Positions 3,182 through 62,696 of a stretch of DNA of 64,000 nucleotides are shown here, one piece after another; the first letter of the stretch is position 1; the number at the start of each line of letters is the position of its first letter. Made by a program: the position numbers and the translations under genes. The notes beneath the pieces were generated by a model. The model was given only the letters and a program-made list of their open reading frames with translations. It ran no database searches and had not been told where the DNA came from. Origin of the DNA: Actinophytocola xinjiangensis (GTDB lineage Bacteria > Actinomycetota > Actinomycetes > Mycobacteriales > Pseudonocardiaceae); NCBI RefSeq assembly GCF_001921215.1, contig NZ_MSIF01000032.1, positions 1 through 64,000 of the forward strand, in the 5' to 3' direction.

Positions 3182-3189
3182 GCCGCCGG

Positions 3190-47184: not shown

Positions 47185-50100
47185 TCAGCGGCGAGGAGCG
47201 GTGAACTCGTAGCGGCCCGAGCCGACGGTCAGCGTCAGGGTTCCGTTCTCGTAGGTGGATTCGTGGACGCCGGGGGTGTCGGTCGCCCTGGCCCGGCCCT
47301 CGGTGACGTCCTGGGGGGACGGCGTGGGGATCACGACCTGGGCGGTGGTGTTGGGTGGGACGGTCGCGGTGAGGGTGAGGGTCGAGTCGGTCAGTTCCCA
47401 GGTCGAGGTGATGGGGCCGTAGGCGGACCGGAAGGTGCCGGTGGCGCTGGTGAGATCACCGCCGGGCGTCGGGGCCAGCCGGAAGGCCCGGTAGCCGGGT
47501 TCCAGCGGGGTGATGCCGGTGACGTTCTCGTACATCCAGGTGCCGACGGCGCCGTAGGCGTAGTGGTTGAAGGAGTTCATCCCCGGGTCGTTGAACGAGC
47601 CGTCCGGGTTGATGGAGTTCCAGCGTTCCCACATGGTCGTGGCACCCATCGCGACCTCGTAGCCCCACGACGGGTACTCCTCGCGGAGCAGCAACTCGTA
47701 GGCCTTGTCCAGGTGGTCGCTGCCGCTCAGGGCGGGCAGCAGCCACGGGGTGCCGAGGAAGCCCGTGGTCAGGGCGTTGCCGCTGGCCTCGATCTTGGCC
47801 ACGAACCGGTCGGCCACCGCCGCGCGGCGCTCGGCCGGGACGAGGTCCATGCCCAGGGTCAGGGCGTAGGCGGTCTGGCTGTTGCCCGACACCGTGCCGT
47901 CGGCGGCCACGTGGGCGGCGGTGAACGCGGCCCGCACGTCGCGGGAGAGCGCCTCGTAGGTCTGGGCGTCGGCGGTTTCGCCGATCGCCGCCGCCATCTC
48001 GGCGAGCATGCGGGTGTCCTGGGCGAAGTACGCCGTCCCCAGGACGCCGGCGGGCGTGGGATCGTTGAGGTTGAGCCAGTCCTCGAACCGGCCCCGGCGG
48101 TCGTCGATCAGGTCCGCGCCGGCTCCCGCGCGGACGAACTCGACGAAGGCGCGCATCGACTGGTAGTGGTCCCGCACGATTCCGGTGTCGCCGAACGCCT
48201 TCCACACGGCGTGCGGGACGGTCACGCCGGCGTCGGCCCAGCCCACCCCGCCGGGGCCGTTGTCGGTGGGTTCGGGGGCGAAGGGCGGGTAGTCGCCGTT
48301 GGGGCGCTGGGTGGTGCGCAGGTCGGCCAGCCACTTCGCGAGGAAGGCCCGGGTGTCCTGGTTGTAGGACGCGGTGGGGGCGAACACGTTGATGTCGCCG
48401 GTCCACCCGAGACGTTCGTCGCGGGCGGGGGTGTCGGTGGGGATGGACAGGAAGTTGCCGCGCTGGCCCCAGGTGATGTTGCTCTGCAACTGGTTGAGCA
48501 TGGGGTTGGAGGTGTGGAACGAACCCGTGGTCGGCAGGTCCGAGCCCCAGACGACACCGTGGACGTCACCGGCCGGCGGGGCGGTGACGCCGGTGATCTC
48601 GACGTAGCGGAAGCCGTGTTGGGTGAAGGTCGGCTCGTAGGTGACGGTGCCGTCGGCGGCGAAGGTGTAGTGGTCGGTGGCCTTGGCGGCGCGGAGGTTC
48701 TCGGTGTAGAGGGTGCCGTCGGGGTTGAGGACCTCGCCGTGGCGGATGGTGGCCGTCCGCCCCTCGGTCCCGCTCAGGCGCAGCCGGGTGACGCCGACCA
48801 TGTTCTGGCCAAGGTCGTAGACGAACGTGCCGGGCGTGGGCTCGGTGCGTTCGACGGCGGTCAGGACCTCGGTCGTGCGGATCGGCTCGTCCGGTTGGGG
48901 CACCAACAGATCCGTGGCGGAACTCGCGGTCTCGGCGGGGCTCCAGGTGCCGTCGAAGTCCGGGGTGGACCAGCCGGGGTGCTCCAGCCTGGCGTCGTAG
49001 TGCTCGCCCGCCTGGAGGTCACCGGTGACGTACGGGCCGCCGGCCGTGGTCCACGCGTCGTCGGTGCGGATCCACTGGTGGGTGCCGTCGGTGAAGTCCA
49101 CCCGCAGCTGGGCCACGGCCGACGGGGTGGCGCCGTAGACGCCGGGGCTCGGGTAGTAGCCGACCCGTCCGGCGTACCAGCCGGGGGCCAGGGCCAGGCC
49201 GAACGCGTTGGCACCACGGCGAACCTGACGCGTGACGTCGTAGGTCTGGTGCTGGATGGTGGTGCGGTAGTCGGTCCAGCCGGGCGCCAGTTCGTGGTCG
49301 CCGACCTTCTCGCCGTTGAGTGACAGCTCGTAGACGCCTCTGGCCGCGCCGTAGGCCCGGGCGGCGACGACCTCCTTGCCGTGGGGGACGGTGAACTCCG
49401 TGCGGAACAAGGGAAGGCTGGTGTTGGCCGAGTAGTACGCCTCGGTGGAGCTGAGCAGGGCCAGGCCGTCGTCGCCGACCGTGCCGCCGCTGAACGGGTT
49501 GTGCCCGTCGGCGAAGTCCACGTCGGCGAGGGTGGCGCCGTCGGGGGCGGTCACCGTCGCGCGGTGCACGATCGCCTGCTCCGGCGCGTTGTTGGACACG
49601 TTGACCCGGTAGCCGAAGGTGCCGGCGGCGACGTCGGTCATCGCGCGGCTGTCGGCCTCGGTGCCGTCGATGGCGGTGGTGACGGTGTTCCCGGTGACCG
49701 AGATCGTCAGGTGGTGGCGGCCGGTGAGCAGGTCCTGTTCGGAGATGACCGCGGAGACGTCGACGACCTCGACGAGTTCGTAGGCGCCGTCGGTGAGCCG
49801 GTGCACGCGCAGCTTGGGTTTGCCGGTGCCGTCGGCGACGTTGATCTGCCACATGTACGCGTCGCGGTCGGCCGCGCGCAGGAACACGCCCAGGGCCAGC
49901 GCGGTGAGGGTGAACTCGGTGTCCACCGTGTAGTCCGTCCAGCGCAGCGACTCGTCGGTGTCGGTCAGCCACTGGGCCCCGGTCCAGTCCGCCGGTGCCA
50001 GCAGGCCGGTCTCGAACCACGCCGGGGCGCTCCACGGGCTGACCTGGCCGTCGCCGTCCCACACCCGGACCTGCCAGTGGTAGCGGGTCGCCGAGCGCAG

Positions 50101-50451
50101 GGCGGCGCCGGCGTAGGGGACGTCGACCTGGCTGGCCGAGGCGACCCGGCCGGAGTTCCAGACGTCGGCGCGGCCCGGCCGGGTGCCGACCCGTACCTGG
50201 TAGGCGCCCTGGACGACGTCCCGGCGGTCCGAGGTGGACATCCAGCCGAACTGGGGTGCGCCGCCGCCGGTGCCCAGCGGGTCGACGCGGCCGTTGGTGG
50301 TCAGGCCACCGACGCGCAGGGAGCCGGCCGCCGAGGCGGGCGCGGCGAGCAGGCTGGCGCACAGGGCCAGGACGGCGGCGAGCACCAGGGTGGAGCGGAA
50401 ACGGTTGACACGAAAGGGGAACAGACCCGGCAGGGAACGGGCTGGGAGCAT
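47185..50451 (-). CDS. Secreted alpha-L-rhamnosidase (GH78)
   Basis: Protein of 1088 residues with a signal peptide (ends APASAAGS). N-terminal fibronectin-like domain (ATRYHWQVRVWDGDGQ, ~45-150), LamG/CBM-like insert (~165-320), rhamnosidase N-terminal beta domain (RAYGAARGVYELSLNGEKVG, ~355-500), then an (alpha/alpha)6 barrel with the GH78 acid motif TDTPARDERLGWTGD (~665-680) and MWERWNS (~945), and a C-terminal beta-sandwich. It removes terminal L-rhamnose from plant glycosides or pectin side chains outside the cell. A perfect LacI-type operator lies 34 bases before its ATG (50451). Confidence 0.9.
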   Translation of the reverse strand: MLPARSLPGLFPFRVNRFRSTLVLAAVLALCASLLAAPASAAGSLRVGGLTTNGRVDPLGTGGGAPQFGWMSTSDRRDVVQGAYQVRVGTRPGRADVWNSGRVASASQVDVPYAGAALRSATRYHWQVRVWDGDGQVSPWSAPAWFETGLLAPADWTGAQWLTDTDESLRWTDYTVDTEFTLTALALGVFLRAADRDAYMWQINVADGTGKPKLRVHRLTDGAYELVEVVDVSAVISEQDLLTGRHHLTISVTGNTVTTAIDGTEADSRAMTDVAAGTFGYRVNVSNNAPEQAIVHRATVTAPDGATLADVDFADGHNPFSGGTVGDDGLALLSSTEAYYSANTSLPLFRTEFTVPHGKEVVAARAYGAARGVYELSLNGEKVGDHELAPGWTDYRTTIQHQTYDVTRQVRRGANAFGLALAPGWYAGRVGYYPSPGVYGATPSAVAQLRVDFTDGTHQWIRTDDAWTTAGGPYVTGDLQAGEHYDARLEHPGWSTPDFDGTWSPAETASSATDLLVPQPDEPIRTTEVLTAVERTEPTPGTFVYDLGQNMVGVTRLRLSGTEGRTATIRHGEVLNPDGTLYTENLRAAKATDHYTFAADGTVTYEPTFTQHGFRYVEITGVTAPPAGDVHGVVWGSDLPTTGSFHTSNPMLNQLQSNITWGQRGNFLSIPTDTPARDERLGWTGDINVFAPTASYNQDTRAFLAKWLADLRTTQRPNGDYPPFAPEPTDNGPGGVGWADAGVTVPHAVWKAFGDTGIVRDHYQSMRAFVEFVRAGAGADLIDDRRGRFEDWLNLNDPTPAGVLGTAYFAQDTRMLAEMAAAIGETADAQTYEALSRDVRAAFTAAHVAADGTVSGNSQTAYALTLGMDLVPAERRAAVADRFVAKIEASGNALTTGFLGTPWLLPALSGSDHLDKAYELLLREEYPSWGYEVAMGATTMWERWNSINPDGSFNDPGMNSFNHYAYGAVGTWMYENVTGITPLEPGYRAFRLAPTPGGDLTSATGTFRSAYGPITSTWELTDSTLTLTATVPPNTTAQVVIPTPSPQDVTEGRARATDTPGVHESTYENGTLTLTVGSGRYEFTAPRR

Positions 50452-50484
50452 GCGAGCCTCCGGCGCTGGCGGTCTCGGCAGGTT

Positions 50485-50502
50485 GATTGAAACGATTCAA
50501 TC
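50485..50502. promoter_or_regulatory. LacI-type operator GATTGAAACGATTCAATC
   Basis: Seven-base perfect arms (GATTGAA/TTCAATC) around ACGA, 34-51 bases upstream of the rhamnosidase ATG. The style resembles actinobacterial rhamnose-type LacI sites (TGAA-CG-TTCA), and the GAAACGATTC core equals the site at 33952. Confidence 0.75.
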
Positions 50503-50612
50503 GCCCCTTCAAGGCTAGGTGACGTGGCTCACCGGCGTCAACCCGCTCCTGGGCGCCCACCGATCAGGAATCGAGAAGCACCGACCGGCCGCCCGCGCCT
50601 AGCGTTGCCCCC

Positions 50613-51239
50613 ATGACCGCCATCGACGCCGTCACCCTTGAGGTGACCGATCCCGTGGGAGCCACCCGCTTCTACGCCGACGCCTTCGGGCTCGACAGCC
50701 AACTGAACCTGCGGGCCGCCACCGGACCGAGCGAGGGGTTCCGCGGCTTCACCCTCTCCCTCACCGTCGCCCAGCCGGCCGACGTGAACCTGCTCACCGA
50801 CGCCGCCGCCGAGGCCGGAGCGACCGTGCTCAAGGCCGCCGAGAAGTCGATGTGGGGCTACGGCGCGGTTCTGCGCGCCCCGGACGGGACGATCTGGAAG
50901 GTGGCGACCTCGGCGAAGAAGGACTCCGGACCGGCCACCCGCGACGTCGAGTCGATCGTGCTGCTGCTGGGCTGCGCGGATGTCGGTGCGGCCAAACGGT
51001 TCTACGTCGAGCACGGCCTGCCGGTGGCCAGGAGCTTCGGCCGGATGTACGTCGAGTTCGAGACCGGCTCCGGGGCGATCACGCTGGGCCTGTACCGGCG
51101 GCGCGCCCTGGCCAAGGTCGCCGGCGTCGACCAGGAGGGATCCGGCTCGCACCGGATCGCCATCGCCGGCACCGGGGCGCCGTTCACCGACCTCGACGGG
51201 TTCGCCTGGGAGACCTCGACGCTGGCGGCCCGGCCCTGA
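50613..51239 (+). CDS. VOC (glyoxalase/bleomycin-resistance) family protein
   Basis: Protein of 208 residues with two VOC modules: TLEVTDPVGATRFYADAFGL (~8-27), LLGCADVGAAKRFYVEHGLP (~117-136) and the paired VLRAPDGTIWKVAT / VEFETGSGAITLGL strands. Typical VOC metal ligands are partly replaced (few His/Glu at the expected positions), so it may bind a ligand rather than act on it. ATG at 50613. Monocistronic, divergent from the rhamnosidase, convergent with the ADP-ribosylglycohydrolase. Confidence 0.8.
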   Translation: MTAIDAVTLEVTDPVGATRFYADAFGLDSQLNLRAATGPSEGFRGFTLSLTVAQPADVNLLTDAAAEAGATVLKAAEKSMWGYGAVLRAPDGTIWKVATSAKKDSGPATRDVESIVLLLGCADVGAAKRFYVEHGLPVARSFGRMYVEFETGSGAITLGLYRRRALAKVAGVDQEGSGSHRIAIAGTGAPFTDLDGFAWETSTLAARP

Positions 51240-51345
51240 TGTGCCGCTACGGTCCGGTATGGACGGACACCGAAACCACTGAGCGGCAAGCGAACGACCA
51301 ACCGGAGATCGTCGAGACGTCTGCTGTGGACCGTGAGCCGGTCGG

Positions 51346-52443
51346 TCAGCCGTAGCGCTCGCGCCAGCCGGTGTCCGGCCCGTGATCGCCGTGCAGCCGC
51401 TGCGACGCGGTGAACTCCAGGACGAGGTCGTCGGCCAGCTCGGCGATGGTGGCCCGGCCCTCCACCCGGAACAGCAGCTGCGGCGGCAGCGCGTCCTCGC
51501 CGTGCCAGGCGCCCAGGATGTTGCCGCAGATCGCGCCGGTGGAGTCGCTGTCACCACCGTGGGTGACCGCCACCGACAGCGCGTCGAGCATCGAGTCCGG
51601 GTGGCACAGTGCCGCGTAGACGGCGATCGCCAGGGCCTCCTCGGCGACCCAGCCGCCGCCCAGCGACTCGACCGCCGCCACCGTCGGCTCGCCCCGCGCG
51701 GCGAGCCGGCGGGCGGCCAGCAGCGCCTCGGTGGTCTCCTCGTGGGACTCGTGGGTGGCCAGCGTCACCATCGCCGCGTCCAGGGCGGCGTCGAGGTCCT
51801 CACCGGCGACCAGGTGGTGCACGACCTGCGCCAGCACCCCGGCGGGGAGCTTGCCAGTGGGGTGGCCGTGGGTGTAGCCGGCGGCGGTGGCACCCGCGTC
51901 GAAACACCAGTCGGCGGTGACGATCGACGGCGGCAGCAGCCCGATCGGAGCGACCCGCATCACCCCGCCACAGCCCTTGGAGTTGTTGGTCGCCTGACCG
52001 CCGTACTGGCGGATCCGCTCGCCACCGCCCCGAGCCGTGCCCAGCGCGCCGAGACAGGTGGTGCCCGGCGCACGTTGCGCGTAGAGCCAGCCGGCGCGGC
52101 CAAGCGGGCCGACCGCGCCGGGCGGCGGCTGGGACAACCGCTGGGTGTCCAGCCAGTGGTCGTAGGCCTCGTGCACGACCCCGAGCGTGAGACCCAGCCC
52201 CCGGTCACGGCGGATGCCCGCCCGGATCAGGCCCTGCACCGTGAACAACGTCATCTGGGTGTCGTCGGTGATCAGGCCGGGGGCCGGCGAGCCACCGCCC
52301 TGGAAGTCACGCACACCCGGCTGGCCGTACTCGCGCAGGATCACGTCGGCCGACCAGAACTCCACGGGGTGGCCAAGAGCGTCGCCGATGGCGCCGCCGA
52401 GCAGGCAACCACGGACCCGGGACCGGTACTCTGCGCCAGACAC
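51346..52443 (-). CDS. ADP-ribosylglycohydrolase family protein
   Basis: Protein of 365 residues from GTG 52443 (an in-frame start at 52464 would add seven). The DraG/ARH fold is shown by the N-terminal RGCLLGGAIGDALGHPVEF, the first metal-binding cluster LITDDTQMTLFTVQGL (TDD), and the second HGGDSDSTGAICGNILGA (D-x-D-S/T), as in dinitrogenase reductase-activating glycohydrolase. It would remove ADP-ribose from proteins or small molecules. No ADP-ribosyltransferase is nearby. Divergent from the RDD protein by 35 bases. Confidence 0.88.
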   Translation of the reverse strand: MSGAEYRSRVRGCLLGGAIGDALGHPVEFWSADVILREYGQPGVRDFQGGGSPAPGLITDDTQMTLFTVQGLIRAGIRRDRGLGLTLGVVHEAYDHWLDTQRLSQPPPGAVGPLGRAGWLYAQRAPGTTCLGALGTARGGGERIRQYGGQATNNSKGCGGVMRVAPIGLLPPSIVTADWCFDAGATAAGYTHGHPTGKLPAGVLAQVVHHLVAGEDLDAALDAAMVTLATHESHEETTEALLAARRLAARGEPTVAAVESLGGGWVAEEALAIAVYAALCHPDSMLDALSVAVTHGGDSDSTGAICGNILGAWHGEDALPPQLLFRVEGRATIAELADDLVLEFTASQRLHGDHGPDTGWRERYG

Positions 52444-52478
52444 GCGGTCACAGTACCGGCGCACGTAGGCTCCCGGCC

Positions 52479-53009
52479 ATGACCGATCTGGAACGGGCGC
52501 GGGCCGACGTCGAGCGGGTTCTCGGGCCGAAGGTCGCCGCGCGTGTCGAGGTGTTCACCGACGGCGGCCTGTACGTGCGGCCCGGTGAGATCCGCCGGCT
52601 GCTGGCCTGGTTCCTCGACTTCGTCGTGTTCCTGCTCCTGGCGGTGATCGGGGTGGTGGCCCTGGCACTGGCCGACCGGTCGGCCGGGTTCGGCGGCGGC
52701 ACGATCGCCATGGCCTTCCTGGGGATCCTGCTGCTCGCGCCCGCGCTGTACGGGCTGGCCTGCTACCGGGGTGGGCGGGCCTTCGGCGGGGTGAGCACCG
52801 GCACCCGGCTGGTGCGGATGGCCGACGGCGGACGGGTCGGGACGCGGGCGCCGTGGGCGATGCTGGTGCGCACGGTGCTGATGCCGCTGCTGCTGGCGGC
52901 CGTCGTGACCGGCGGCACCTCCCCTGGCGGGACACTGGCCAGGACCAGTGTGGACGTCGCCGGGACCGGGCGGCTGCACGCGGCGGGGTTCCACCGGCTG
53001 GTCAGGTGA
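52479..53009 (+). CDS. RDD family membrane protein
   Basis: Protein of 176 residues with RDD-type helices: RRLLAWFLDFVVFLLLAVIG (the R..D pattern in helix 1), APALYGLACYRGGRAFGGVSTGTRLVR and LLMPLLLAAVV. RDD proteins are small transporters or accessory membrane proteins of unknown specific role. The hydrophilic N-terminal 35 residues (ARADVERVLGPKVAARVEVF) lie in the cytoplasm. ATG at 52479. The end overlaps the convergent membrane gene by eight bases. Confidence 0.78.
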   Translation: MTDLERARADVERVLGPKVAARVEVFTDGGLYVRPGEIRRLLAWFLDFVVFLLLAVIGVVALALADRSAGFGGGTIAMAFLGILLLAPALYGLACYRGGRAFGGVSTGTRLVRMADGGRVGTRAPWAMLVRTVLMPLLLAAVVTGGTSPGGTLARTSVDVAGTGRLHAAGFHRLVR

Positions 53010-53490
53010 ACAACAACACCCCCAGCGCGGCGGCGACCGCCGAGCCGGCGACGAGCTTGATCGTCCGCAGGTGGGTGTGCAGGCGCCCGTCCCAGGTCTC
53101 GCCGTCACCGCTGGCGAAACGGGCGGTCGGGGTCAGGGCGCGGCCCAGCCCGAAGCCCACGCCGGCGGCGACCGAGGTGAGCAGGCCGGGCCCGGCCAGC
53201 ACCAGGGCGACCACCAGCACGTAGGGCACCGTGGACGAGACGTAGGTACGCACCCCGGTGCCCATCTCGAAACCGAACCGCAGCGACCCGCGCGCCACGT
53301 TCTCGGTCAGCACGTTTCGCGGGACCTGGCGGGCGTTCTGCGGCAGCGGGAACCGGACCAGCCCGGCGTCACGGGCCACCCCGGCCACCGCCACGGCGAC
53401 CACGACCGACGCGAGAACGGTGTCCGGGACCGGCGGGACCAGGCCGCTGACCACCCACAGCACCAGCGCGCTGAGCACCGCGCCGAGCAC
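53002..53490 (-). CDS. Membrane protein, last gene of Mau-like operon
   Basis: Protein of at least 162 residues with four hydrophobic segments around a conserved-looking loop (RQVPRNVLTENVARGSLRFGFEMGTGVRTYV) and a C-terminal helix. GTG at 53490 is the first standard start, but codon use upstream (TSPGWRGGTRQGAALALFDVGL, same frame) looks coding back to ~53560, where only a CTG (53559) is available. The true N-terminus may therefore be longer or begin at CTG. I do not recognise the family; the neighbours suggest assembly or anchoring of the 12-Cys protein. Confidence 0.6.
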   Translation of the reverse strand: MLGAVLSALVLWVVSGLVPPVPDTVLASVVVAVAVAGVARDAGLVRFPLPQNARQVPRNVLTENVARGSLRFGFEMGTGVRTYVSSTVPYVLVVALVLAGPGLLTSVAAGVGFGLGRALTPTARFASGDGETWDGRLHTHLRTIKLVAGSAVAAALGVLLFT

Positions 53491-53580
53491 CAGCCCGACG
53501 TCGAACAGCGCCAGCGCGGCGCCCTGTCTGGTCCCTCCCCGCCACCCGGGCGAGGTCAGCGCGAAGGCGCTGTTCCTGGT

Positions 53581-53721
53581 TCAAACCGAGCCGGACAGGG
53601 TGTAGCCGGCCAGCCCGCCGAGCACCGCCCACGCGGCGACCGCCCACCCGGCCACGGCCAGCGCGACCGCCGCCGGGGCCAGGAGCAGCGCCGTGACCGG
53701 ATGGGTGAGGAACCGGGTCAC
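53581..53721 (-). CDS. 46-residue hydrophobic peptide ending in GSV
   Basis: Small gene beginning MTRFLTHPVTALLLAPA, with two adjacent hydrophobic stretches and ending GYTLSGSV. Its GTG overlaps the stop of the 12-Cys protein gene (GTGA at 53721-53718), which is good evidence that it is translated. The TGA stop is followed in the same frame by the next membrane protein's coding-like sequence. Probably a single- or double-span membrane peptide of the Mau-like operon; no known family. Confidence 0.6.
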   Translation of the reverse strand: MTRFLTHPVTALLLAPAAVALAVAGWAVAAWAVLGGLAGYTLSGSV

Positions 53722-54653
53722 GCGGCCCCGCCGGTCAGGGTCCGCCAGGTCGTCGGGCCGACGACCCCGTCGGCGGTGATCCTGTTCTGCCGCTGGAAGT
53801 CCGTCGTGGCCGCCAGGCTCGCCGCGCCGAACGCGCCGTCCACGACGAGTTGGTAGCCGTAGCGGTTCAGCTCCACCTGGGCGGCCTGGACGGGGCCGCC
53901 GTTGTCGCCCTGGCGCGCGTTCACGACCAGCGCCGGCCAGGTCCGCGAGGTGACCGAGCCGGTGGCCGACAGTCCCTGCGAGGTCTGGAAGTCACGCACC
54001 GCCTGGGCGGTCAGCGGGCCGTAGGCGCCGTCGACGTCGAGGACGAAACCGTGGTGGCCCAACAGGTACTGGATCGCGCGGACGGTCGCGCCGGACGCGC
54101 CGGAGGACACCGACGGCCAGGTCACGCTGGACGGGCAGCCGCACTCGGTGGTCCACCGGCAGATCGAGTTGACCCAGCCGGAGCCGGTCCGGCGGTAGCC
54201 GTCGTGGCAGCGGCGTTCGATGTGGCACGAGCACGCGCCGCAGGCCTGGTCGTAGCGCCACAGCCAGCCGTCGTAGCTGCCGGACAGGCAGGCGTTGGGC
54301 CGCAGCTTCCAGGTGACCTGGTCGTTCTTGTGGAAGCCGGTGTTGGCTCCTGAGGTGACGCACGAGTCGGCGAAGATCGTGCTGGGGCCGCAACCGGGTG
54401 AGCAGTCGTGGTCGGCGGCGTAGGACGGGCAGGTGGGGTAGATGTCGTAGCCGTCGGCGACCGCGCGGCGCACCGACGGGAACAGGCCGCCGAGCGCGGT
54501 GAGCCCGGCGACGCCACCCACGCGCAGTACCGCGCGGCGGGTCGGTGCCCAGCCGGCCCAGCGCGGCCGGCGCGCGCGGGTCCTGGCCTCGACGGGCATC
54601 CCGGGGTCGGTGCCGCGCAGCGGCGGCACCCCGACAACCTGATCGCTGTTCAC
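53718..54653 (-). CDS. Tat-exported 12-Cys MADH-light-chain-like protein with two PG-binding domains
   Basis: Protein of 311 residues. Tat-type signal (PTRRAVLRVGGVAGLTALGG, RR 39-40), then a Cys-rich domain with exactly twelve cysteines (75, 84, 88, 98, 122, 138, 141, 143, 149, 165, 171, 173). Number and spacing recall the methylamine dehydrogenase light chain, which has six disulfides and a tryptophan tryptophylquinone cofactor; W115 and W167 fall near its two modified Trp by eye. Two peptidoglycan_binding_1 domains follow (~183-245 and ~250-311; VDGAYGPLTAQAVRDFQ, VDGAFGAASLAATTDFQ). Coupled by ATGA/GTGA to MauD-like and small membrane genes. No catalytic heavy chain is present, so redox function is unproven. 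Confidence 0.75.
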   Translation of the reverse strand: MNSDQVVGVPPLRGTDPGMPVEARTRARRPRWAGWAPTRRAVLRVGGVAGLTALGGLFPSVRRAVADGYDIYPTCPSYAADHDCSPGCGPSTIFADSCVTSGANTGFHKNDQVTWKLRPNACLSGSYDGWLWRYDQACGACSCHIERRCHDGYRRTGSGWVNSICRWTTECGCPSSVTWPSVSSGASGATVRAIQYLLGHHGFVLDVDGAYGPLTAQAVRDFQTSQGLSATGSVTSRTWPALVVNARQGDNGGPVQAAQVELNRYGYQLVVDGAFGAASLAATTDFQRQNRITADGVVGPTTWRTLTGGAA

Positions 54654-55123
54654 CGAACCTCCATCGCGGGGGCGAGCAACTGGCGTACGGCCGCGCGCGA
54701 CCCGACCGGCGCGGCGGCGGTGATCCGGCCGTCCTCGCCGACCAGGACCGCGAACGGGGTGGCGAGCGCGCCGTAGGGGGCGAACAGGTGCCCCTGGTCG
54801 GCGCGGGCGAGGACGCCGGGCGGGACCTCGGCGGCCGAGGACTCGTAGAGCGCGACCACCGTCAGCCGCTCCCCCACCGCGTCGACGGTCTCGGCGACCG
54901 CCTCGGTGCAGGTGTGGCAGGTCGAGCGCAGGAACAGCAGCACGGCCGGGGCGCTGACGCCCAACGGCGCGAGGTCGGCGCGGTCGCCGGGGCGCGAGCC
55001 GGCCGGCACCGGCCGGGTGCCGCCCGACAGCGCGTGCACCTGGCGGACCAGGCCGGCGACCACGAACGCCAGCAGCAGCAACGCCGCCCAGGTCACGATG
55101 AGCGCGCTGGTCTGGAAACTCAT
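54650..55123 (-). CDS. MauD-like thioredoxin-fold membrane protein
   Basis: Protein of 157 residues. N-terminal TM anchor (ALIVTWAALLLLAFVVAGL), then an extracytoplasmic thioredoxin-like domain with C69-H-T-C72 in FLRSTCHTCTEAV and the cis-Pro region ATPFAVLVGEDG. MauD is needed for correct disulfide formation in the methylamine dehydrogenase light chain; the same gene order (E, D, cysteine-rich protein) is kept here. ATGA overlaps join it to both neighbours. It should supply or shuffle disulfides for the 12-Cys protein. Confidence 0.8.
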   Translation of the reverse strand: MSFQTSALIVTWAALLLLAFVVAGLVRQVHALSGGTRPVPAGSRPGDRADLAPLGVSAPAVLLFLRSTCHTCTEAVAETVDAVGERLTVVALYESSAAEVPPGVLARADQGHLFAPYGALATPFAVLVGEDGRITAAAPVGSRAAVRQLLAPAMEVR

Positions 55124-55650
55124 CTCGCCACCTCCGGGGATCGGGTCGCCGCCGGCAGGTGCCAGAGCAGGGTGGCGAACGTGCCGGCGGCCAGCAGCAC
55201 GATCACGAGCCGTTCGTCGACGTGGGACAGCGGGATCAGCGGGATCACCGTGTCGGCGGCCACGGCGGTGCCGGCGGCCAGGGCGGCGAGGACCAGCGCG
55301 CGGACGGTCACCCACGGGCCCATCGGGACCTCGGTTCCGCCGCAGCCGCAGGGTCCGCCCCGGCCGGTCCTGGTGACGTGCCAGGAGTAGGCGCCGTAGC
55401 CGGCGAACAGCAGCGCGGCGGCTGCCGGGACCAGCGGCGCCGGCCCGAACACCAGCCCGGCGATCATGGCGACGCCCAGCGCGGCCTCGGCGACGGTCAC
55501 CGCGAGGGCGGTCACGCGGATCGCGGCGGCCGGCAGGACGCGGTGCGCGGCGAGGGCGGCGGGCAGCGCGCCGGGGGCGCGGACCCGTTCGGCCACGGCG
55601 GTCACCAGGATCGCGGCGACGACGTAGGCCGCGACGCTCACCGGGAACAT
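55120..55650 (-). CDS. MauE/DoxX-like membrane protein
   Basis: Protein of 176 residues with four to five TM helices and the MauE hallmark GRGGPCGCGG (C101, C103) after YSWHVTRT. MauE works with MauD in light-chain maturation, probably passing electrons or oxidising equivalents across the membrane. An extra TM pair at the C-terminus ends LLWHLPAATRS. ATG at 55650, seven bases after the upstream gene; its stop overlaps the MauD-like start. Confidence 0.8.
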   Translation of the reverse strand: MFPVSVAAYVVAAILVTAVAERVRAPGALPAALAAHRVLPAAAIRVTALAVTVAEAALGVAMIAGLVFGPAPLVPAAAALLFAGYGAYSWHVTRTGRGGPCGCGGTEVPMGPWVTVRALVLAALAAGTAVAADTVIPLIPLSHVDERLVIVLLAAGTFATLLWHLPAATRSPEVAR

Positions 55651-55657
55651 CGGCGGC

Positions 55658-56404
55658 TCACCGGTCGTCGAGCAGACGCGCGCCGAGGCGGTCCACCAAG
55701 GCCGGGAGCGCCGCCAGGTCGGTGTCGGCGAGCGGGAGCACGGTGGTCCAGACGTCGGCGCCGGCGAGCACGAAGTACGGGTCGCCGTTGGAGAGCCGGT
55801 CGGTGAACAGCTCGCCGGAGCGGGTCTGGACGCCTTTCCAGGCTGGCAGGCGGGTGGCCTGCGGGGCGTTGGACACGGTCAGTTCCAGCAGGCCCAGCGT
55901 CGGGACCTCCTTGACCAGGGTCGCGGGGGCGAGCACGGCGGCGCCGGTGCCCGGGGCCAGCGCCAGGCCGTCGTCGTGTTCGGTGATGCCCAGGGTGTCG
56001 AGGGTGTCCACGGCGGTGGCGGTCGAGGCGCCGTAGAAGTGGCTGACGAGGCAGTGCCGCCGGCCGCGCCACACGGCCAGCAGGATGTCCTCGGTGATCC
56101 GCGATCCCGGCTCAACGCGGCGGGTCCGGCCGATGAGCAGGGTGCCGCCGGCGAAGCGCAGTTCCTCGTCGAAGCCGGCGACGCCGAGCGCTGCTGCGAC
56201 CTCTCCGGCCAGGCCGCTGACCCCGGCGACCAGTTCGTGGGTGCGGCCGCGCACGGCGACCCGCAGCGAGGAGGTGGAGGGTTGGGCGAGGTCGAGCGGG
56301 CCGGTCAGTTCGTATCGCCGGCCGTCCAGTGCCCGGTGCACGACGGTGGTCGTCTCTCCGGTCGCGAGCGCCACGGGGTCCTCCCGGAGAGGTATGGTAG
56401 TCAC
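55658..56404 (-). CDS. Unknown protein, first gene of Mau-like operon
   Basis: Protein of 248 residues from GTG 56404 with a weak ribosome site. No signal peptide or TM helix; a mixed alpha/beta composition starts MTTIPLREDPVALATGETTT, with a Trp/Arg/His stretch AVWRGRRHCLVSHFYGAST and a C-terminal WTTVLPLADTDL. No family recognised. Position at the head of the operon, behind an AT-rich promoter region (56405-56488), suggests a cytoplasmic role in making or using the 12-Cys protein, but nothing in the sequence proves it. Confidence 0.7.
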   Translation of the reverse strand: MTTIPLREDPVALATGETTTVVHRALDGRRYELTGPLDLAQPSTSSLRVAVRGRTHELVAGVSGLAGEVAAALGVAGFDEELRFAGGTLLIGRTRRVEPGSRITEDILLAVWRGRRHCLVSHFYGASTATAVDTLDTLGITEHDDGLALAPGTGAAVLAPATLVKEVPTLGLLELTVSNAPQATRLPAWKGVQTRSGELFTDRLSNGDPYFVLAGADVWTTVLPLADTDLAALPALVDRLGARLLDDR

Positions 56405-56488
56405 TGACGAGAATCAGCTATGCATTGCAAATATATTACGTGTTCCCGTGATCGGAAATACGCCGTTTCCCGCACAGCACTGGTTCGC

Positions 56489-57478
56489 TCAGGCCACGAC
56501 GATCGTCTGACCGTCCACTCGCGAGACCAGTTCGCCGATCACCGTCGCCCCCGGGATCTCCCCCGCCAGCAGCAGCCCGCCCGAGGTCTGGGCGTCGGCC
56601 AGCAGCAGCGCGGTCTCCTCGTCGACGGCGTCCAGGCCGACGTGCGGACGCACCCAGTCCAGGTTGCGCCGCGACCCGCCCGGCACGAACCCGGCGCGCA
56701 GCGACTCCCGCGCCCCGTCGACCAACGGCACCGCCGAGGAGTCCACGACGGCCGTGACCCCGCTGGCCCGCGCGAGCTTGTGCAGGTGCCCCAGCAGACC
56801 GAACCCGGTCACGTCGGTGGCGCAGGTGAGGCCGGCGGCCAGGGCCGCGGCACTGGCCGTGTCGTTGAGCGTGGTCATCACCTCGACCGCCTGGGGAAAC
56901 CGCTCGCCGGTCGCCTTGTGCCGGTTGTTCAGCACGCCGAGGCCCAGCGGCTTGGTCAGCGACAGCGGCTGACCGGGACGGCCGGAGTCGTTGCGCAGCA
57001 ACCGGTCCGGATGCGCCAGGCCGGTGACCGCGAGGCCGTACTTCGGCTCGGGGTCATCGACGCTGTGCCCACCGGCGAGATGGCAGCCGGCCTGGGCGCA
57101 GACCTCGGCACCGCCGCGCAACACCTCGGCGGCCAGCGCGAAGTCCAGCACCTCCCTCGGCCAGCCAAGCAGGTTCAGCGCCACCACCGGACGCCCGCCC
57201 ATCGCGTAGACGTCCGACAACGCATTGGCCGCGGCGATCCGCCCCCAGTCGTAGGGGTCGTCGACGACCGGGGTGAAGAAGTCGGTGGTGGCGACCAGCG
57301 CACGCTCGGCGTCCAGGCGCACCACCGCCGCGTCGTCGCCGTCGTCCAGACCGACCAGCAGGTCACCGCGGGCCTGGCCGCGCAGGCCCCGGACCACCTC
57401 CTCCAACTCGCCCGGCGGGATCTTGCAGGCACAGCCGCCACCGTGGGCGTACTGGGTCAGGCGCGGCGCGTCAGTCAT
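56489..57478 (-). CDS. selD: Selenide, water dikinase
   Basis: Protein of 329 residues. SelD makes selenophosphate from selenide and ATP. The N-terminal active-site segment HGGGCACKIPP keeps the catalytic Cys and Lys (as Cys17/Lys20 in E. coli; Cys here, not selenocysteine). AIRS-type ATP-binding pieces include VGLDDGDDAAVV, FFTPVVDDPYDWGRIAAANALSDVYAMGG, GHSVDDPEPKYGLAV and CATDVTGFGLLGHL. ATG at 57478 is 34 bases from the divergent selA start. No ribosome site is evident, so the message may be leaderless. Confidence 0.93.
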   Translation of the reverse strand: MTDAPRLTQYAHGGGCACKIPPGELEEVVRGLRGQARGDLLVGLDDGDDAAVVRLDAERALVATTDFFTPVVDDPYDWGRIAAANALSDVYAMGGRPVVALNLLGWPREVLDFALAAEVLRGGAEVCAQAGCHLAGGHSVDDPEPKYGLAVTGLAHPDRLLRNDSGRPGQPLSLTKPLGLGVLNNRHKATGERFPQAVEVMTTLNDTASAAALAAGLTCATDVTGFGLLGHLHKLARASGVTAVVDSSAVPLVDGARESLRAGFVPGGSRRNLDWVRPHVGLDAVDEETALLLADAQTSGGLLLAGEIPGATVIGELVSRVDGQTIVVA

Positions 57479-57512
57479 GGCTGTCACGATGTACCCATGC
57501 CCTGGTCCGCCG

Positions 57513-58805
57513 ATGACTGACCCCCGCCGGCGCATCCCGCGTACCGACGTCCTGCTCGCCGACCCCCGGCTGGCCGACGCCGCGCGGCGGATCGGCACAC
57601 CGCTGGTGAAGGCCGCCGTGACCGCCGCGCAGGCCGGGGCCAGGGCCGGCGAGGTCGACGTCGAGCGGATCGCCGACCACGCGCTGGCCGCGCTGCCGGC
57701 CACCGCCTCTGGCCTGCGGCCGGTGCTCAACGCCACCGGCGTGCTGGTGCACACCAACCTGGGCCGCGCGCCGCTGTCGGCCGCCGCGCTCGACGCGGTG
57801 CACGCTGCCGGCGGCACCACCGACGTCGAGTTCGACCTGGACACCGGCCGGCGGGCCCGCCGGGGACGCGGCGCGCTCGGCGCGCTGGCCGAGGCGGTGC
57901 CCGACGCGCAGGCCGTGCACGTGGTCAACAACAACGCCGCCGCGCTGCTGCTGTGCGCCACCGCGTTGGCCGGCGGCAAGGAGATCGTGCTCAGCCGGGG
58001 CGAGCTGGTGGAGATCGGCGACGGGTTCCGGCTCCCCGAACTGCTGGCCGCGACCGGCGCCCGGCTGCGCGAGGTCGGCACGACCAACCGCACGACGGTC
58101 GCCGACTACGCCGCCGCGCTCGGCCAGGACACCGGGTTCGTGCTCAAGGTGCACCCGTCGAACTTCCTGGTCACCGGCTTCACCTCCGGTGCCGAGGTCG
58201 CCGACCTGGCCGCACTCGGCGTGCCGGTGGTCGCCGACATCGGCTCGGGTCTGCTGGCCCCCGACCCGGTCCTGCCCGCCGAGCCGGACGCGGCGACCCT
58301 GCTGCGCGCGGGCGCGGCGCTGGTCACCGCCAGCGGCGACAAGCTGCTCGGCGGCCCGCAGGCCGGGCTGCTGCTCGGCCGGCGTGACCTGGTGGAGGCG
58401 CTGCGCCGGCACCCGGTCGCCCGCGCCCTGCGGGTCGACAAGCTCACCCTGGCCGCGCTGGAGGCGACCCTGCGCGGGCCGGCGCCGCCGGTGCGCGCGG
58501 CACTGCGGGCCGAGCCGACCGGGCTGCGGGACCGCGCGGCGCGGCTGGCCGGCGAGCTGGCGGACCGAGGCGTCGACGCGCGGGCCGTGGACTCGGTCGC
58601 CGTGGTCGGCGGCGGCGGGGCACCGGGCGTCGAACTGCCGAGCGCGGCGGTGAGCCTGCCCGCCGGGTACGCGTCCCGGCTGCGGGCCGGGGACCCACCG
58701 GTGGTCGGCCGGGTCGAACGGGACCGCTGCCTGCTGGACCTGCGCACGGTCGAACCGGCGGAGGACGGACGGTTACGGGACGCGGTACTCGTAGCCACAC
58801 CCTGA
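57513..58805 (+). CDS. selA: L-seryl-tRNA(Sec) selenium transferase
   Basis: Protein of 430 residues. PLP-dependent SelA: NATGVLVHTNLGRAPLS, VVNNNAAALLLCATALAGG, REVGTTNRTTVADY, VADIGSGLL and the PLP lysine in SGDKLLGGPQAGLLLGR (~285). It converts seryl-tRNA(Sec) to selenocysteinyl-tRNA using selenophosphate from the divergent selD. ATG at 57513; an in-frame ATG at 57489 is an alternative. selB and selC are not in the window, and no selenoprotein gene (for example formate dehydrogenase) is adjacent. Confidence 0.93.
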   Translation: MTDPRRRIPRTDVLLADPRLADAARRIGTPLVKAAVTAAQAGARAGEVDVERIADHALAALPATASGLRPVLNATGVLVHTNLGRAPLSAAALDAVHAAGGTTDVEFDLDTGRRARRGRGALGALAEAVPDAQAVHVVNNNAAALLLCATALAGGKEIVLSRGELVEIGDGFRLPELLAATGARLREVGTTNRTTVADYAAALGQDTGFVLKVHPSNFLVTGFTSGAEVADLAALGVPVVADIGSGLLAPDPVLPAEPDAATLLRAGAALVTASGDKLLGGPQAGLLLGRRDLVEALRRHPVARALRVDKLTLAALEATLRGPAPPVRAALRAEPTGLRDRAARLAGELADRGVDARAVDSVAVVGGGGAPGVELPSAAVSLPAGYASRLRAGDPPVVGRVERDRCLLDLRTVEPAEDGRLRDAVLVATP

Positions 58806-58955
58806 TCCGGTTGTCACTCGATAGAGGGAAAATCCGGCAACATCAGGTGTGCCTCGGCGTCGATGGTGGCGAGTCCCGCCGGACGTGGCCTAGGCAGTAA
58901 AGGGTGCGCACCGGACCTCTTCTCCAGCCGGCTCACCCTCGTTGCCGGAACGTGA

Positions 58956-58988
58956 CCGGGCGCCGCACCACGACGGTGCGGCGCCCGG
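58956..58988. terminator. Bidirectional terminator between selA and afsA homologue
   Basis: Perfect 14-bp stem (CCGGGCGCCGCACC with GGTGCGGCGCCCGG) and ACGAC loop, between convergent genes. It can serve both directions. Confidence 0.75.
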
Positions 58989-59003
58989 CCACGGCGTGAC
59001 GTG

Positions 59004-60005
59004 TCAGGACAGGGAAGGCCGCAGCGGCGGGGTCAGTTCGACCTCCGCGTCGGCGATCCGCGCGCCCAGCTGGGTCAGCGTGGCGTGCACCTCGACCACC
59101 CCGTCCGGGGACGTCCCGACGACCGACACCTCGCACTCGGTCAGCGCGTCCAGCTCGGCGAACTCCAGGAACCGCAGCCGGCAGGCGGTCACGGCGGCGA
59201 CCGGCACCGGCAGCGCACCGGCCTGGTGCGCCGCGCTGATCGTGGCCTGCCGGTACATCTCCAGCAGCAGCGACCCGGTGACGTGGTCGTGCGGGTGGTC
59301 GAAGTACGCCGGATGGGTCTCGTCGACGATCAGCGCGAAACGCCGTGGTCCGGCCGGGTGGATCACCATGTTGCGGGTATCCGCCCGGCCGACCTCGGAC
59401 GGCGCCGCCGGCCTCGGCTCCGGCAGCGGGTTCCCCGTGCCGTCGAGCCGTTTGCGGGCGCGTCCCTGGGCGCGCAGGATCTCGTACTCCGCGCGCCGCA
59501 GCATCTGGATCCGGCCGCTGACCTCCATCGCCAGCCGGCCGCCGAGTTCCAGCTCGCCGCGGAACTCCATGACCGTCAGGAACCCCTCGCGCTCCTGGCG
59601 GTCGAGCAGCTCCGCGCGCACCACACCCTCCGGTGGCGAGAGCCGGTTGTCGGCGAACGCGGACAGGTCGTGCACCCGGAAGTCCAGACGTTCCAGGAAC
59701 ATCTTCGTGCCGACCGGGACCTCGCAGTACCGGTGGGCGATCAGGAACGCCGCCTGGCGGCCGACCTCCACCGACACCAGCGGGTCGTGGTCGGCCAGCA
59801 GCCGGTCCGACCACATGCTGTGCGCCCGGGGCAGCTGCGCCCCGAGCACGAACTGGTCCGGTCCGGTCCGGACCGAGTCGGTGATGAACACCTCGGACAG
59901 TGCCCGGACGTGGACGAGCCCTCGGGGCACCGTCTGCTCGTAGGACAGCTCCGGGGTGTCCGACTCCACGGTCGGCGCCTCGCTCATCGTTGGCAGGCCG
60001 TCCAC
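59004..60005 (-). CDS. AfsA-family gamma-butyrolactone biosynthesis protein
   Basis: Protein of 333 residues from GTG 60005, with GGAAGAGGTG upstream (an inner ATG at 59987 lacks a site). Two AfsA hot-dog repeats: VPRGLVHVRALSEVFITDS to FLIAHRYCEVPVGTKMFLE (~28-125), and MVIHPAGPRRFALIVDETHPAYFDHPHDHVTGSLLLEMYRQA (~213-255, with the conserved HP..FDHP..DH..G segment). AfsA condenses a beta-ketoacyl chain with dihydroxyacetone phosphate to start A-factor-type signal synthesis. No TetR-type receptor (ArpA/ScbR) gene is adjacent, so it may serve an unlinked receptor or another product. Confidence 0.87.
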   Translation of the reverse strand: MDGLPTMSEAPTVESDTPELSYEQTVPRGLVHVRALSEVFITDSVRTGPDQFVLGAQLPRAHSMWSDRLLADHDPLVSVEVGRQAAFLIAHRYCEVPVGTKMFLERLDFRVHDLSAFADNRLSPPEGVVRAELLDRQEREGFLTVMEFRGELELGGRLAMEVSGRIQMLRRAEYEILRAQGRARKRLDGTGNPLPEPRPAAPSEVGRADTRNMVIHPAGPRRFALIVDETHPAYFDHPHDHVTGSLLLEMYRQATISAAHQAGALPVPVAAVTACRLRFLEFAELDALTECEVSVVGTSPDGVVEVHATLTQLGARIADAEVELTPPLRPSLS

Positions 60006-60027
60006 GACGCGGTCACCTCTTCCGTTC

Positions 60028-60762
60028 TCAGCTGGTGGCGCGCGCGGCGGCGGCCGTGGTGGGGGCGAGCTGCTCCTCGGCGATGTTCACCAGCACCGCG
60101 GTGACCAGGTCGGGGCGCTCCAGGTGGGCGAAGTGGTTGGTGGGGATGTCCACCACGCGCCCGCAGCGCTCGGCGTGGGCGCGCTGGCGGTCGATCTGGA
60201 TGTCCTCGTCCTGGGTGCAGACGACGAACGTCGACGGGACGTCGGCCCAGGCGCGGCCGTTGGACACCTCGGTGAACGGCAGGATGGCCTGGCGGGTCAG
60301 CCGCTTGAGGGCGCCCTCGGCCAGTTCCTTGTCCGGCAGCGCGGTGATCACCCCGGTCTTGGTGCCGCCCTCGCTGGCGGTGCCGTCCGGGCGGATGTCG
60401 AACTTGGGGACGTCGTTGGGGTTGGTGAAGTCGGCCTCCAGCACCGAGGTGCCGTCCGGCACGACCGCGCTCATGTAGACGAGGTGGTCGACCTTCGGGT
60501 TGTCGGCGGCGGCCTCGGTGATGACGATGCCGCCGTAGGAGTGGCCGACCAGGATCACCGGGCCGTCGGCGCGCTCGATCGCCGCACGCACCGCGTTGAC
60601 GTCGTCGGCGAGCGTGCACTGGGCGGCGTTGTCGCCACAGCTGGGCAGGTCGACCGGAATGCTCTCGATTCCGCGCATCTTCAGCAGGTTCCCGACCTTG
60701 TGCCACCACCACGCGCTGTCGGCGATGAATGCACCGTGAACGAATACCACCGTAGTAGCCAT
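60028..60762 (-). CDS. Alpha/beta-fold hydrolase
   Basis: Protein of 244 residues. TVVFVHGAFIADSAWWWHKV oxyanion-hole region (HGAF), nucleophile elbow VGHSYGGIV (Ser ~94), acid in a late strand (CTQDEDIQI) and catalytic His in TNHFAHLERPDLV (~222). Resembles EstC/hydroxynitrile-lyase-type esterases common in actinomycetes. AAGGAG precedes the ATG at 60762 at an ideal distance. It lies 22 bases upstream of the afsA homologue in the same direction, so co-transcription is likely; it may act on the lactone signal or on a metabolite, which is inference. Confidence 0.85.
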   Translation of the reverse strand: MATTVVFVHGAFIADSAWWWHKVGNLLKMRGIESIPVDLPSCGDNAAQCTLADDVNAVRAAIERADGPVILVGHSYGGIVITEAAADNPKVDHLVYMSAVVPDGTSVLEADFTNPNDVPKFDIRPDGTASEGGTKTGVITALPDKELAEGALKRLTRQAILPFTEVSNGRAWADVPSTFVVCTQDEDIQIDRQRAHAERCGRVVDIPTNHFAHLERPDLVTAVLVNIAEEQLAPTTAAAARATS

Positions 60763-60895
60763 GATGCTCCTTAGAATTGATTTCGCGGGTCCCCTGTGCC
60801 ACCACCGGTTCTCGGGCCCTGCGGGCTTGAGCATCCACCGGTTCGCGGATTCGGGCCAGGCTTCTCGTCGTCGTTTGTAGCGGCCTTCGAGAGCG

Positions 60896-61288
60896 TCATG
60901 CCGCGCGCAGGACGAACACCGGGTGGTCGGCCGGGTCGGGCAGTGCCCGGAAGAACCGGGACACCTGCGAGGCCCAGCGCCGGCGGTAGGCCTCGACGAT
61001 CGGCGCGCGTTCGCCGGCCGGCACCTCGTGTACCGACAACGTGCGTGTCGCGCCGCGTCGTCGCAGCTCACAGGTGCCGGCGGCGCGCAGGTTGCGCACC
61101 CACTGGGACTCCCCGCGCACGGACACGAGGTACTCGCGGCCGTCGTGGTCGAAGACGTTGACCGGCAGGGTCTGGGTGCGGCCGGTGCGCCGCGTGCGGA
61201 CCGCGAGCGTGCTCGCCATCCCGAGTGAGGTTGCCAGTGGGTTGAGCAGGTTGCGGTCAACCCAGTTCGGTGCCAGATAGGACGACAT
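60896..61288 (-). CDS. Deazaflavin (F420)-dependent nitroreductase-family protein
   Basis: Protein of 130 residues. Ddn/split beta-barrel family: STLAVRTRRTGRTQTLPVNVF, REYLVSVRGESQWVRNLRAAG (F420-phosphate region, typically G-x-x-x-x-W-x-x-N-L) and FFRALPDPADHPVFVL. Members reduce enones or quinones with F420H2. ATG at 61288 was preferred over an upstream in-frame start at 61351 because homologues begin shortly before the N-W-V-D-R-N-L segment. It precedes the hydrolase gene in the same direction by 133 bases. Confidence 0.82.
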   Translation of the reverse strand: MSSYLAPNWVDRNLLNPLATSLGMASTLAVRTRRTGRTQTLPVNVFDHDGREYLVSVRGESQWVRNLRAAGTCELRRRGATRTLSVHEVPAGERAPIVEAYRRRWASQVSRFFRALPDPADHPVFVLRAA

Positions 61289-62646: not shown

Positions 62647-62656
62647 GTTCCCGCAG

Positions 62657-62690: not shown

Positions 62691-62696
62691 GTGCGC

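What the first reader, a model, noticed from the sequence alone, without database searches (positions are those of the whole stretch)
53002..56404. Mau-like maturation operon serving a 12-cysteine, MADH-light-chain-like protein fused to peptidoglycan-binding domains
The sequence shows a tightly overlapped operon: unknown protein, MauE-like (GGPCGCGG), MauD-like (CHTC), a Tat-exported protein with exactly 12 Cys and Trp near the two quinone-forming positions, a 46-residue membrane peptide and another membrane protein. In methylamine dehydrogenase, MauE and MauD mature the light chain, whose six disulfides use 12 Cys around a tryptophan tryptophylquinone. Here the light-chain-like domain carries two cell-wall-binding domains, and there is no heavy chain, no amicyanin and no MauG. 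That suggests an uncharacterised wall-anchored redox, sensor or toxin-like protein using the Mau disulfide machinery.
Basis: partly seen in the sequence, partly recalled or inferred. Interest (0 to 1): 0.78.

Follow-up and report, generated by a model that had tools for sequence, protein, structure and literature searches.

The report
Hidden selenoprotein in Mau-like wall operon
Two small 'genes' in this soil-bacterium operon are really one gene for an unannotated membrane protein that very likely contains selenium, and which probably helps fold a cysteine-rich protein that is exported to the cell wall.

Summary
The ORFs exist as described, but the 46-residue peptide (53721-53581 -) and the following membrane protein (53490-53002 -) are one reading frame interrupted by an in-frame TGA (53583-53581). 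The joined protein is a relative of Paracoccus MauF. At the TGA column, 87 aligned MauF-like rows show 60 TGA and 27 Cys codons, nothing else (three of the 60 are duplicate loci). A hairpin at fixed distance follows the TGA in TGA forms (complete in 40 of 51) and not in Cys forms (1 of 26). selA is found in 46 of 47 TGA genomes and 11 of 25 Cys genomes tested. selD and selA lie next door; selB and tRNA-Sec are elsewhere in the genome. So this is a MauF-like selenoprotein, seen in many Actinomycetota beside MauD, sometimes MauE, and a Cys-rich exported protein that may carry a wall-binding domain (PG_binding_1, LGFP, SLH). MADH-light-chain identity of the 12-Cys domain is not shown: no model hit, Cys number and second TTQ Trp not conserved, structure model useless. 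I propose a dedicated thiol-disulfide relay that matures a wall protein; its chemistry is inferred.

The parts
53002..53721 (-). MauF-like membrane selenoprotein gene, one frame: GTG start at 53721, TGA (Sec) at 53583-53581, final TGA at 53004-53002 (239 residues)
   Evidence: frame conserved on both sides of the TGA in four species, homology to P. denitrificans MauF via Cys-form homologues, invariant Sec/Cys column
53581..53583 (-). in-frame TGA read as selenocysteine (inferred)
53557..53572 (-). SECIS-like hairpin CAGCGC-CTTC-GCGCTG, nucleotides 9-24 after the TGA
53718..54653 (-). exported (twin-Arg by eye) Cys-rich wall-binding protein, 311 aa
54135..54431 (-). 12-Cys domain (residues 75-173) with DGWLW motif
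53928..54095 (-). PG_binding_1, first copy
53736..53918 (-). PG_binding_1, second copy (extent from the PDB matches)
54650..55120 (-). MauD-like membrane-anchored thioredoxin-like protein (CHTC)
55120..55650 (-). MauE-like membrane protein (PCGCGG)
55658..56404 (-). unknown protein that recurs with this subtype of operon
   Evidence: no family; relatives in L075, L178, L232, L174; weak in L231, L229
56489..57478 (-). selD, 84 bases upstream of the operon, same direction
57273..58805 (+). selA (ORF as listed; model match 57528-58784), divergent from selD

Best explanation
The operon encodes a selenocysteine-dependent Mau-type maturation relay and its client. Steps with direct sequence support: (1) 53721-53002 is one gene whose UGA is read as Sec, giving a MauF-like membrane protein with a single invariant Sec/Cys. 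(2) It overlaps or abuts genes for a MauD-like and a MauE-like protein and an exported Cys-rich protein with two peptidoglycan-binding domains, downstream of selD. Inferred steps: MauE (CxC) and MauF-like (Sec), both membrane proteins, exchange electrons with the membrane-tethered MauD (CxxC), which makes, breaks or reshuffles disulfides of the Cys-rich client after export, before or while it binds the wall. Sec gives the relay a fast, re-reducible selenolate where MADH clusters use Cys. I put about 0.95 on the selenoprotein, about 0.9 on MauF homology and about 0.6 on the maturation role; the stated confidence is for the joint statement.
For: Conserved frame: synonymous changes are frequent only in frame 0 before and after the TGA (33:9 and 42:29 syn:nonsyn against 1:39, 1:36, 14:63, 8:59 in the other frames). 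Sec/Cys column: 60 TGA, 27 Cys codons, 0 others in 87 covered rows. In Pseudonocardiaceae 46 of 47 matches hold one in-frame TGA; of 33 fetched rows 31 have it at the column, one fragment (L230) does not reach the column, and G191 has none; G191 is the only one of 37 further MauF-positive genomes without selA. Hairpin: 40 of 51 TGA against 1 of 26 Cys sequences; a second clade has the stem with a 6-base loop, 19 of 21 with 5 or more pairs; any geometry 64 of 72 against 6 of 26 (shuffled 13.7 and 4.0); stems of different letters in the same place. selA: 46 of 47 TGA genomes against 11 of 25 Cys genomes, Fisher p 1.8e-7. Own genome has tRNA-Sec and a selB match 22 bases apart, selA and selD in the window. 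MauF homology: P. denitrificans MauF against Cys-form L070, 31% identity, E 8e-12, shared STWSPCG. DsbD/CcdA kinship: PF02683 E 4e-6 and PF13386 4e-5 for L073, both just under cut-off. Client: wall domains differ (PG_binding_1, LGFP, SLH) while the Cys-rich/MauD/MauF set persists.
Against: No experiment shows Se. The window protein alone does not align significantly with P. denitrificans MauF (E 1.1) and has no DsbD-type Pfam hit; the links run through intermediates. The subtype of the window lacks the Pro before and the Gly after Sec. G800 carries a TGA but no selA was found. G191 has neither TGA nor Cys at the column. In 11 of 51 TGA sequences the standard stem is incomplete, and single-sequence z-scores for the window clade are modest (-0.7 to -2.1). 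MauE is not found within 5.5 kb in 46 of 57 TGA loci. MauF-like has one invariant Sec/Cys, not two as DsbD/CcdA (recalled). Client function is unknown, and the maturation role is argued from gene order only.
Confidence: 0.6

Rival explanations
1. The TGA is an ordinary stop: a 46-residue peptide and a separate 162-residue membrane protein are translated.
For: The ORF listing shows them apart; a GTG at 53490 could start the second gene in the window.
Against: Conserved in-frame protein between TGA and that GTG; L015 has GTA instead of GTG there; Cys-form homologues read straight through; post-TGA hairpin and selA linkage.
Confidence: 0.03
2. The Sec protein is real but not a maturation factor for the Cys-rich protein: it is a membrane selenoprotein for peroxide, thiol or selenium homeostasis that merely shares the operon (selD upstream).
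For: selD directly upstream; 18 of 26 Cys-form loci had no MauD-like match within 4.5 kb and in 20 of 26 I read no Cys-rich client.
Against: In TGA forms a MauD-like gene is near in 53 of 57 loci, with a Cys-rich client in 46 of 57 by my reading; in P. denitrificans mauF sits in the mau cluster with mauE, mauD, mauA.
Confidence: 0.25
3. The 12-Cys domain is a true MADH-light-chain relative carrying a tryptophan-derived quinone, i.e. a wall-bound quinoprotein.
For: Graded links against a light-chain HMM (E-values for a small local set): T. roseum light-chain-like gene beside MauD and Cys-form MauF (3e-19), L176 client beside a Sec-form MauF (5e-8), L179-L181, L074, L071 (1e-6 to 3e-4; for L179-L181 the shown alignments lie largely in the signal region).
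Against: The window domain itself is absent from that list at E 10; no PF02975; profile comparison of the commonest client type with light chains is weak (E 0.021, probability 2%); second Trp not conserved; no heavy chain over cut-off.
Confidence: 0.07
4. The Cys-rich protein is a secreted toxin or effector and the Mau-like genes are its folding helpers.
For: Wall-binding domains and dense disulfides would suit a secreted antibacterial protein (inference).
Against: No toxin-family match (an immunity gene was not searched for); one copy at a conserved locus in four Actinophytocola species.
Confidence: 0.04

Closest known systems
mau cluster of Paracoccus denitrificans (mauR F B, MauE, mauD A, amicyanin, mauJ, MauG ... 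as annotated)
   Same: MauE, MauD, a twin-Arg Cys-rich small protein and a MauF with the SP-[C/U]-G motif of most relatives
   Different: Sec instead of Cys in MauF-like; no heavy chain, amicyanin or MauG in the operon; client has wall-binding domains and no detectable light-chain sequence
DsbD/CcdA transmembrane thiol carriers (PF02683, PF13386)
   Same: distant sequence similarity of MauF-like relatives L069, L073, L074
   Different: all under the Pfam cut-offs, and no such hit for the window protein; one invariant Sec/Cys
Known bacterial selenoprotein families
   Same: in-frame UGA with Cys homologues, a hairpin just 3' of it, Sec machinery in the genome
   Different: no NCBIfam or Pfam model reaches its cut-off on the proteins tried; not found by the paper searches listed
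Aralkylamine dehydrogenase cluster (aauB-mauE-mauD-aauA)
   Same: MauE-MauD beside a light chain
   Different: no MauF match in that 10.5 kb stretch and a heavy chain present

Membership tests
Selenoprotein | in-frame UGA aligned with Cys in homologues | tested here: met
   60 TGA, 27 Cys, 0 other in 87 covered rows
Selenoprotein | hairpin just downstream of the UGA, not shared by Cys homologues | tested here: met
   (40 of 51 against 1 of 26); published bSECIS consensus not tested
Selenoprotein | selA, selB, selD, tRNA-Sec in the same genome | tested here: met
Selenoprotein | selenium in the protein | not testable with these tools
   needs 75Se or mass spectrometry
MauF | homology to P. denitrificans MauF | tested here: met
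   via L070, E 8e-12; one alignment; direct comparison not significant (E 1.1)
MauF | needed for maturation of a Cys-rich exported subunit | not testable with these tools
   gene order only
MauE (PF07291) | model score over cut-off | tested here: met
   59.4 bits, cut-off 27
MauD (TIGR02661) | model score over cut-off | tested here: not met
   15 bits, cut-off 188.6; so MauD-like only
MADH light chain (PF02975 / TIGR02659) | model match of the 12-Cys domain | tested here: not met
MADH light chain (PF02975 / TIGR02659) | two Trp that form TTQ (positions recalled) | tested here: not met
   only W-x-W conserved
MADH light chain (PF02975 / TIGR02659) | heavy chain partner | tested here: not met
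   PF06433 best E 0.18, under cut-off
MADH light chain (PF02975 / TIGR02659) | light-chain fold | tested here: inconclusive
   pLDDT 35
DsbD/CcdA | Pfam match over cut-off | tested here: not met
   best 26.7 bits against 27.1 (a relative, L073); none for the window protein
Peptidoglycan-binding protein (PF01471) | model score over cut-off | tested here: met
   98.1 bits, two stretches, cut-off 23

The most novel reading that the evidence does not exclude
MauF-like is a large, so far unlisted selenoprotein family of Actinomycetota, and with MauD (and sometimes MauE) it forms a Sec-dependent disulfide-maturation machine for wall-bound Cys-rich proteins, of which the MADH maturation genes of Proteobacteria are the Cys-using cousins; it is one reason why many of these bacteria keep the Sec machinery.
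Probability: 0.5. Interest if true: 0.85.

Novelty: new variant of a known kind. Interest (0 to 1): 0.74.

Why it matters
As far as I recall, MauF has no known biochemical role; Sec exactly at its one invariant Cys points to that residue as the active centre and makes the question testable. A selenoprotein that ORF listing splits into a tiny peptide and a truncated membrane protein belongs to a family with matches in 72 of 296 genomes of one class (TGA and Cys forms) and 41 of 249 genomes of the window's family. A 2016 survey noted that a few Sec-using bacteria lacked known selenoprotein genes, most likely through incomplete genomes, and did not exclude new ones (PMC5029168, passages); this family is a candidate for some of them.

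Tried and rejected
AlphaFold model of the 12-Cys domain from four orthologues: mean pLDDT 35, not searched against structures. A MauF-like model could not be queued. Rfam scan of 49000-64000: only matches far under the gathering scores, among them SECIS_3 at 54249-54310, inside the Cys-rich gene. Sec-containing formate dehydrogenase in the own genome: the 8 TIGR01553 matches, all under cut-off, have no stop inside. Profile comparison of the commonest client type with MADH light chains: weak. I first took a T. roseum hit for a MauE-MauF fusion; the MauF match lies in a separate gene downstream. Weak first-search loci L077-L081 were fetched but not analysed; L182 gave no row.

Paper searches: selenoprotein + MauE (69 papers, 15 listed), four selenoprotein terms (none), selenoprotein + methylamine dehydrogenase (1), bacterial selenoprotein terms (17), 'selenoprotein neighborhoods' (1), MauF (33, 20 listed), selenoprotein + Acidimicrobi (2), MauD/MauE/disulfide/MADH (21, 12 listed), selenoprotein + CcdA (9, 8 listed), selenoprotein + Pseudonocardia (1). 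I saw listings only and no listed title is on this family. Passages were searched in PMC13188914, PMC12013277, PMC5029168 and PMC9312934: 'methylamine' occurs in none of the four; MauF was looked for only in the last. Haft and Gwadz 2023 and Haft and Tolstoy 2025, the papers most likely to hold such a family, are not held: nothing seen, so a prior description there is not excluded.
Full report
Where and what. The window lies in a 9.5 Mb genome whose nearest named relatives here are Actinophytocola species (Pseudonocardiaceae). On the - strand selD (56489-57478) is followed after 84 bases by an unknown 248-residue protein, then MauE-like, MauD-like, the 12-Cys protein and a membrane protein, with gaps of 7, -1, -4 and -4 bases. 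selA is divergent from selD. The operon is conserved in three other Actinophytocola species; its Cys-rich domain was not found in two others (G115, G132), which have selA and no MauF-like match.

The hidden gene. The protein between TGA and that GTG, TRNSAFALTSPGWRGxTRQG in most rows, is conserved in all four species; in L015 the GTG is GTA. Counts of synonymous and other codon differences mark frame 0 as coding on both sides of the TGA.

Relatives. The read-through protein matched 17 of 396 phylum genomes at E 0.01, own genome included; several weak matches are probably chance. The better ones carry either one TGA or a Cys at the same place, mostly in a motif SP[U/C]GxSM...TP. P. denitrificans MauF, taken from an annotated record, has STWSPCGYSS and matches the Cys form L070 at 31% identity, E 8e-12; alone it does not match the window protein significantly (E 1.1), although its Cys and the TGA fall in one column. 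In a 13-row alignment the Sec/Cys column, a Pro and a Gln are invariant. The profile of these rows found matches in 72 of 296 genomes of the class of G532 and in 41 of 249 of the window's family. Of 88 aligned rows from 89 loci, one (a contig end) does not cover the column; the other 87 hold 60 TGA, 20 TGC and 7 TGT. Three TGA rows duplicate the named Actinophytocola records and one Cys row is P. denitrificans. In the window's family 46 of 47 matches hold one TGA somewhere in the match; in 33 rows that I aligned (window included) 31 have it at the column, L230 is a fragment that does not reach the column, and G191 has a Ser codon in a poorly aligned stretch. Of the 31, five are the window and Actinophytocola and two more are repeats of the same locus, leaving 24 new distinct loci. 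A quick tree of 107 rows (80 Sec, 27 Cys) needs at least 5 changes between Sec and Cys, 3 of them forced by starred branches (quick method, several long branches).

The hairpin. Counting from the base after the TGA, bases 9-14 pair with 19-24. The stem is complete in 40 of 51 distinct TGA sequences and 1 of 26 Cys sequences; sliding the 3' arm lowers the TGA mean from 5.25 pairs to 1.6-3.4. Folding energy and z-score also separate the groups (Mann-Whitney p 2e-9 and 4e-8), though many of these sequences are related. Where bases 19-21 code for Ser the codon is AGC in 34 of 34 TGA sequences and 2 of 8 Cys sequences. Stems differ in letters but not place: CAGCGC/GCGCTG in Actinophytocola, GATGCT/AGCATC in 31 others, GATGGT/ACCATC in two; CTC[AG]GC/GCTGAG with a 6-base loop in other Pseudonocardiaceae, where 15 of 21 stems are complete and 19 of 21 have at least 5 pairs. 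With any geometry allowed 64 of 72 TGA and 6 of 26 Cys sequences have a stem of 6 or more; shuffles give 13.7 and 4.0. I did not test the published bSECIS consensus.

Sec machinery. Of 104 genomes first listed, 80 were given: 62 of the 72 class hits, 10 further MauF-positive genomes and 8 without a match. selA was found in 46 of 47 TGA genomes, 11 of 25 Cys genomes and 6 of 8 without (Fisher p 1.8e-7 for the first two). The exception G800 has a TGA and no selA match in a 290-contig assembly. In the window's family 36 of 37 further MauF-positive genomes have selA (G167 as a fragment under the cut-off), the one without being G191; 8 of 18 MauF-negative ones have it too, so other selenoproteins or uses must exist. 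The own genome has one tRNA-Sec over cut-off, 22 bases from the selB match.

The neighbours. A MauD-like match lies within 4.5 kb on the same strand in 53 of 57 TGA loci and 8 of 26 Cys loci; MauE-like within 5.5 kb in 11 of 57 and 2 of 26 (the HMMs were built from named mau clusters plus window-group, L068, L072 and L074 sequences, so those match by construction, and several contigs end nearby). Reading the printed sequences, I find a Cys-rich client in 46 of 57 TGA loci and 6 of 26 Cys loci; some listed rows are plainly wrong-frame and were not counted, and clients of L016, L177, L179 and L071 appear only. Two main client types: one with NxCPPGT...GWW...RYYxDC (25 rows aligned), one like the window's, with [DN][GA]WxW...[RK]C[HSA]DG...IC. 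A profile of the latter found such a protein upstream of MauF-like in 22 of the 24 new distinct Pseudonocardiaceae loci; L226 and L227 are weak (E 0.07 and 0.14), L231 and L232 were in the profile, L225 and L233 gave none. C-terminal wall domains vary: PG_binding_1 in the window protein, LGFP (L073, L115), SLH (L162, L169), none recognised at E 0.01 in L160 and L136.

Light-chain question. Against a profile of seven light chains, an unannotated T. roseum gene (E 3e-19) and the client of L176 (E 5e-8) match clearly, L179-L181, L074, L071 and L145 weakly, and the window's domain not at E 10 (E-values for a small local set; the shown L179-L181 alignments lie largely in the signal region). So some clients of MauF-like proteins are light-chain relatives; for the window's client this is not shown. 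The conserved W-x-W and the non-conserved second Trp speak against a tryptophylquinone here (the TTQ positions are recalled). No PF06433 member over cut-off is in the genome.

Mechanism. From established knowledge (recalled): MauE and MauD are needed for MADH light-chain maturation, and MauD is thioredoxin-like. MauF-like relatives show distant kinship to DsbD/CcdA transmembrane domains (PF02683 E 4e-6 in L073, PF13386 E 2e-4 in L074, under cut-off). A membrane protein with one invariant Sec/Cys, a membrane-tethered CxxC protein and an exported Cys-rich client in one tightly packed operon are best read as a thiol-disulfide relay and its client. Direction of electron flow, the role of MauE (often not found) and the need for Sec are inference.

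Novelty. On the proteins tried, no Pfam or NCBIfam model reaches its cut-off for the MauF-like proteins or for P. denitrificans MauF. The paper searches named in Tried and rejected found nothing on it, but the two most relevant selenoprotein papers by Haft and colleagues are not held, so I cannot exclude a prior mention.

Noticed in passing
L176 (G668:C8), client upstream of a Sec-form MauF-like gene: Its Cys-rich protein matches the light-chain profile (E 5e-8) and has Trp-containing motifs NWWTACC and AWC that may correspond to both quinone positions; a possible Sec-matured quinoprotein. The same genome has three Sec-form MauF-like loci (L157, L174, L176).
   Followed up: partly
L189:5761-6317 + (Thermomicrobium roseum plasmid): Unannotated twin-Arg light-chain-like gene (Trp motifs SSW and NNWC) followed by a MauE/DoxX-annotated protein with a long N-terminal part, a MauD-like protein and a Cys-form MauF-like gene annotated as hypothetical.
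   Followed up: partly
G031, G055, G071, G086, G108, G125: Two MauF-like matches in one genome; the second in G031 (L230) is a fragment whose TGA is not at the Sec column.
   Followed up: no
L160 and L136 clients: Long C-terminal regions of the Cys-rich proteins without a Pfam match at E 0.01.
   Followed up: no
G000:C2:51522-51914, C1:752907-753293, C21:85017-85403: Further MauE-family genes in the own genome that score higher than the operon's copy.
   Followed up: no
window 47185-50451 -, 51346-52464 -, 59004-60005 -: Look by eye like a large secreted glycosidase, an ADP-ribosylglycohydrolase and an AfsA-type protein; recalled resemblance, no search run.
   Followed up: no
window 3162-3255 -: ARAGORN reports a tRNA-like structure with a two-base anticodon, probably spurious.
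   Followed up: no
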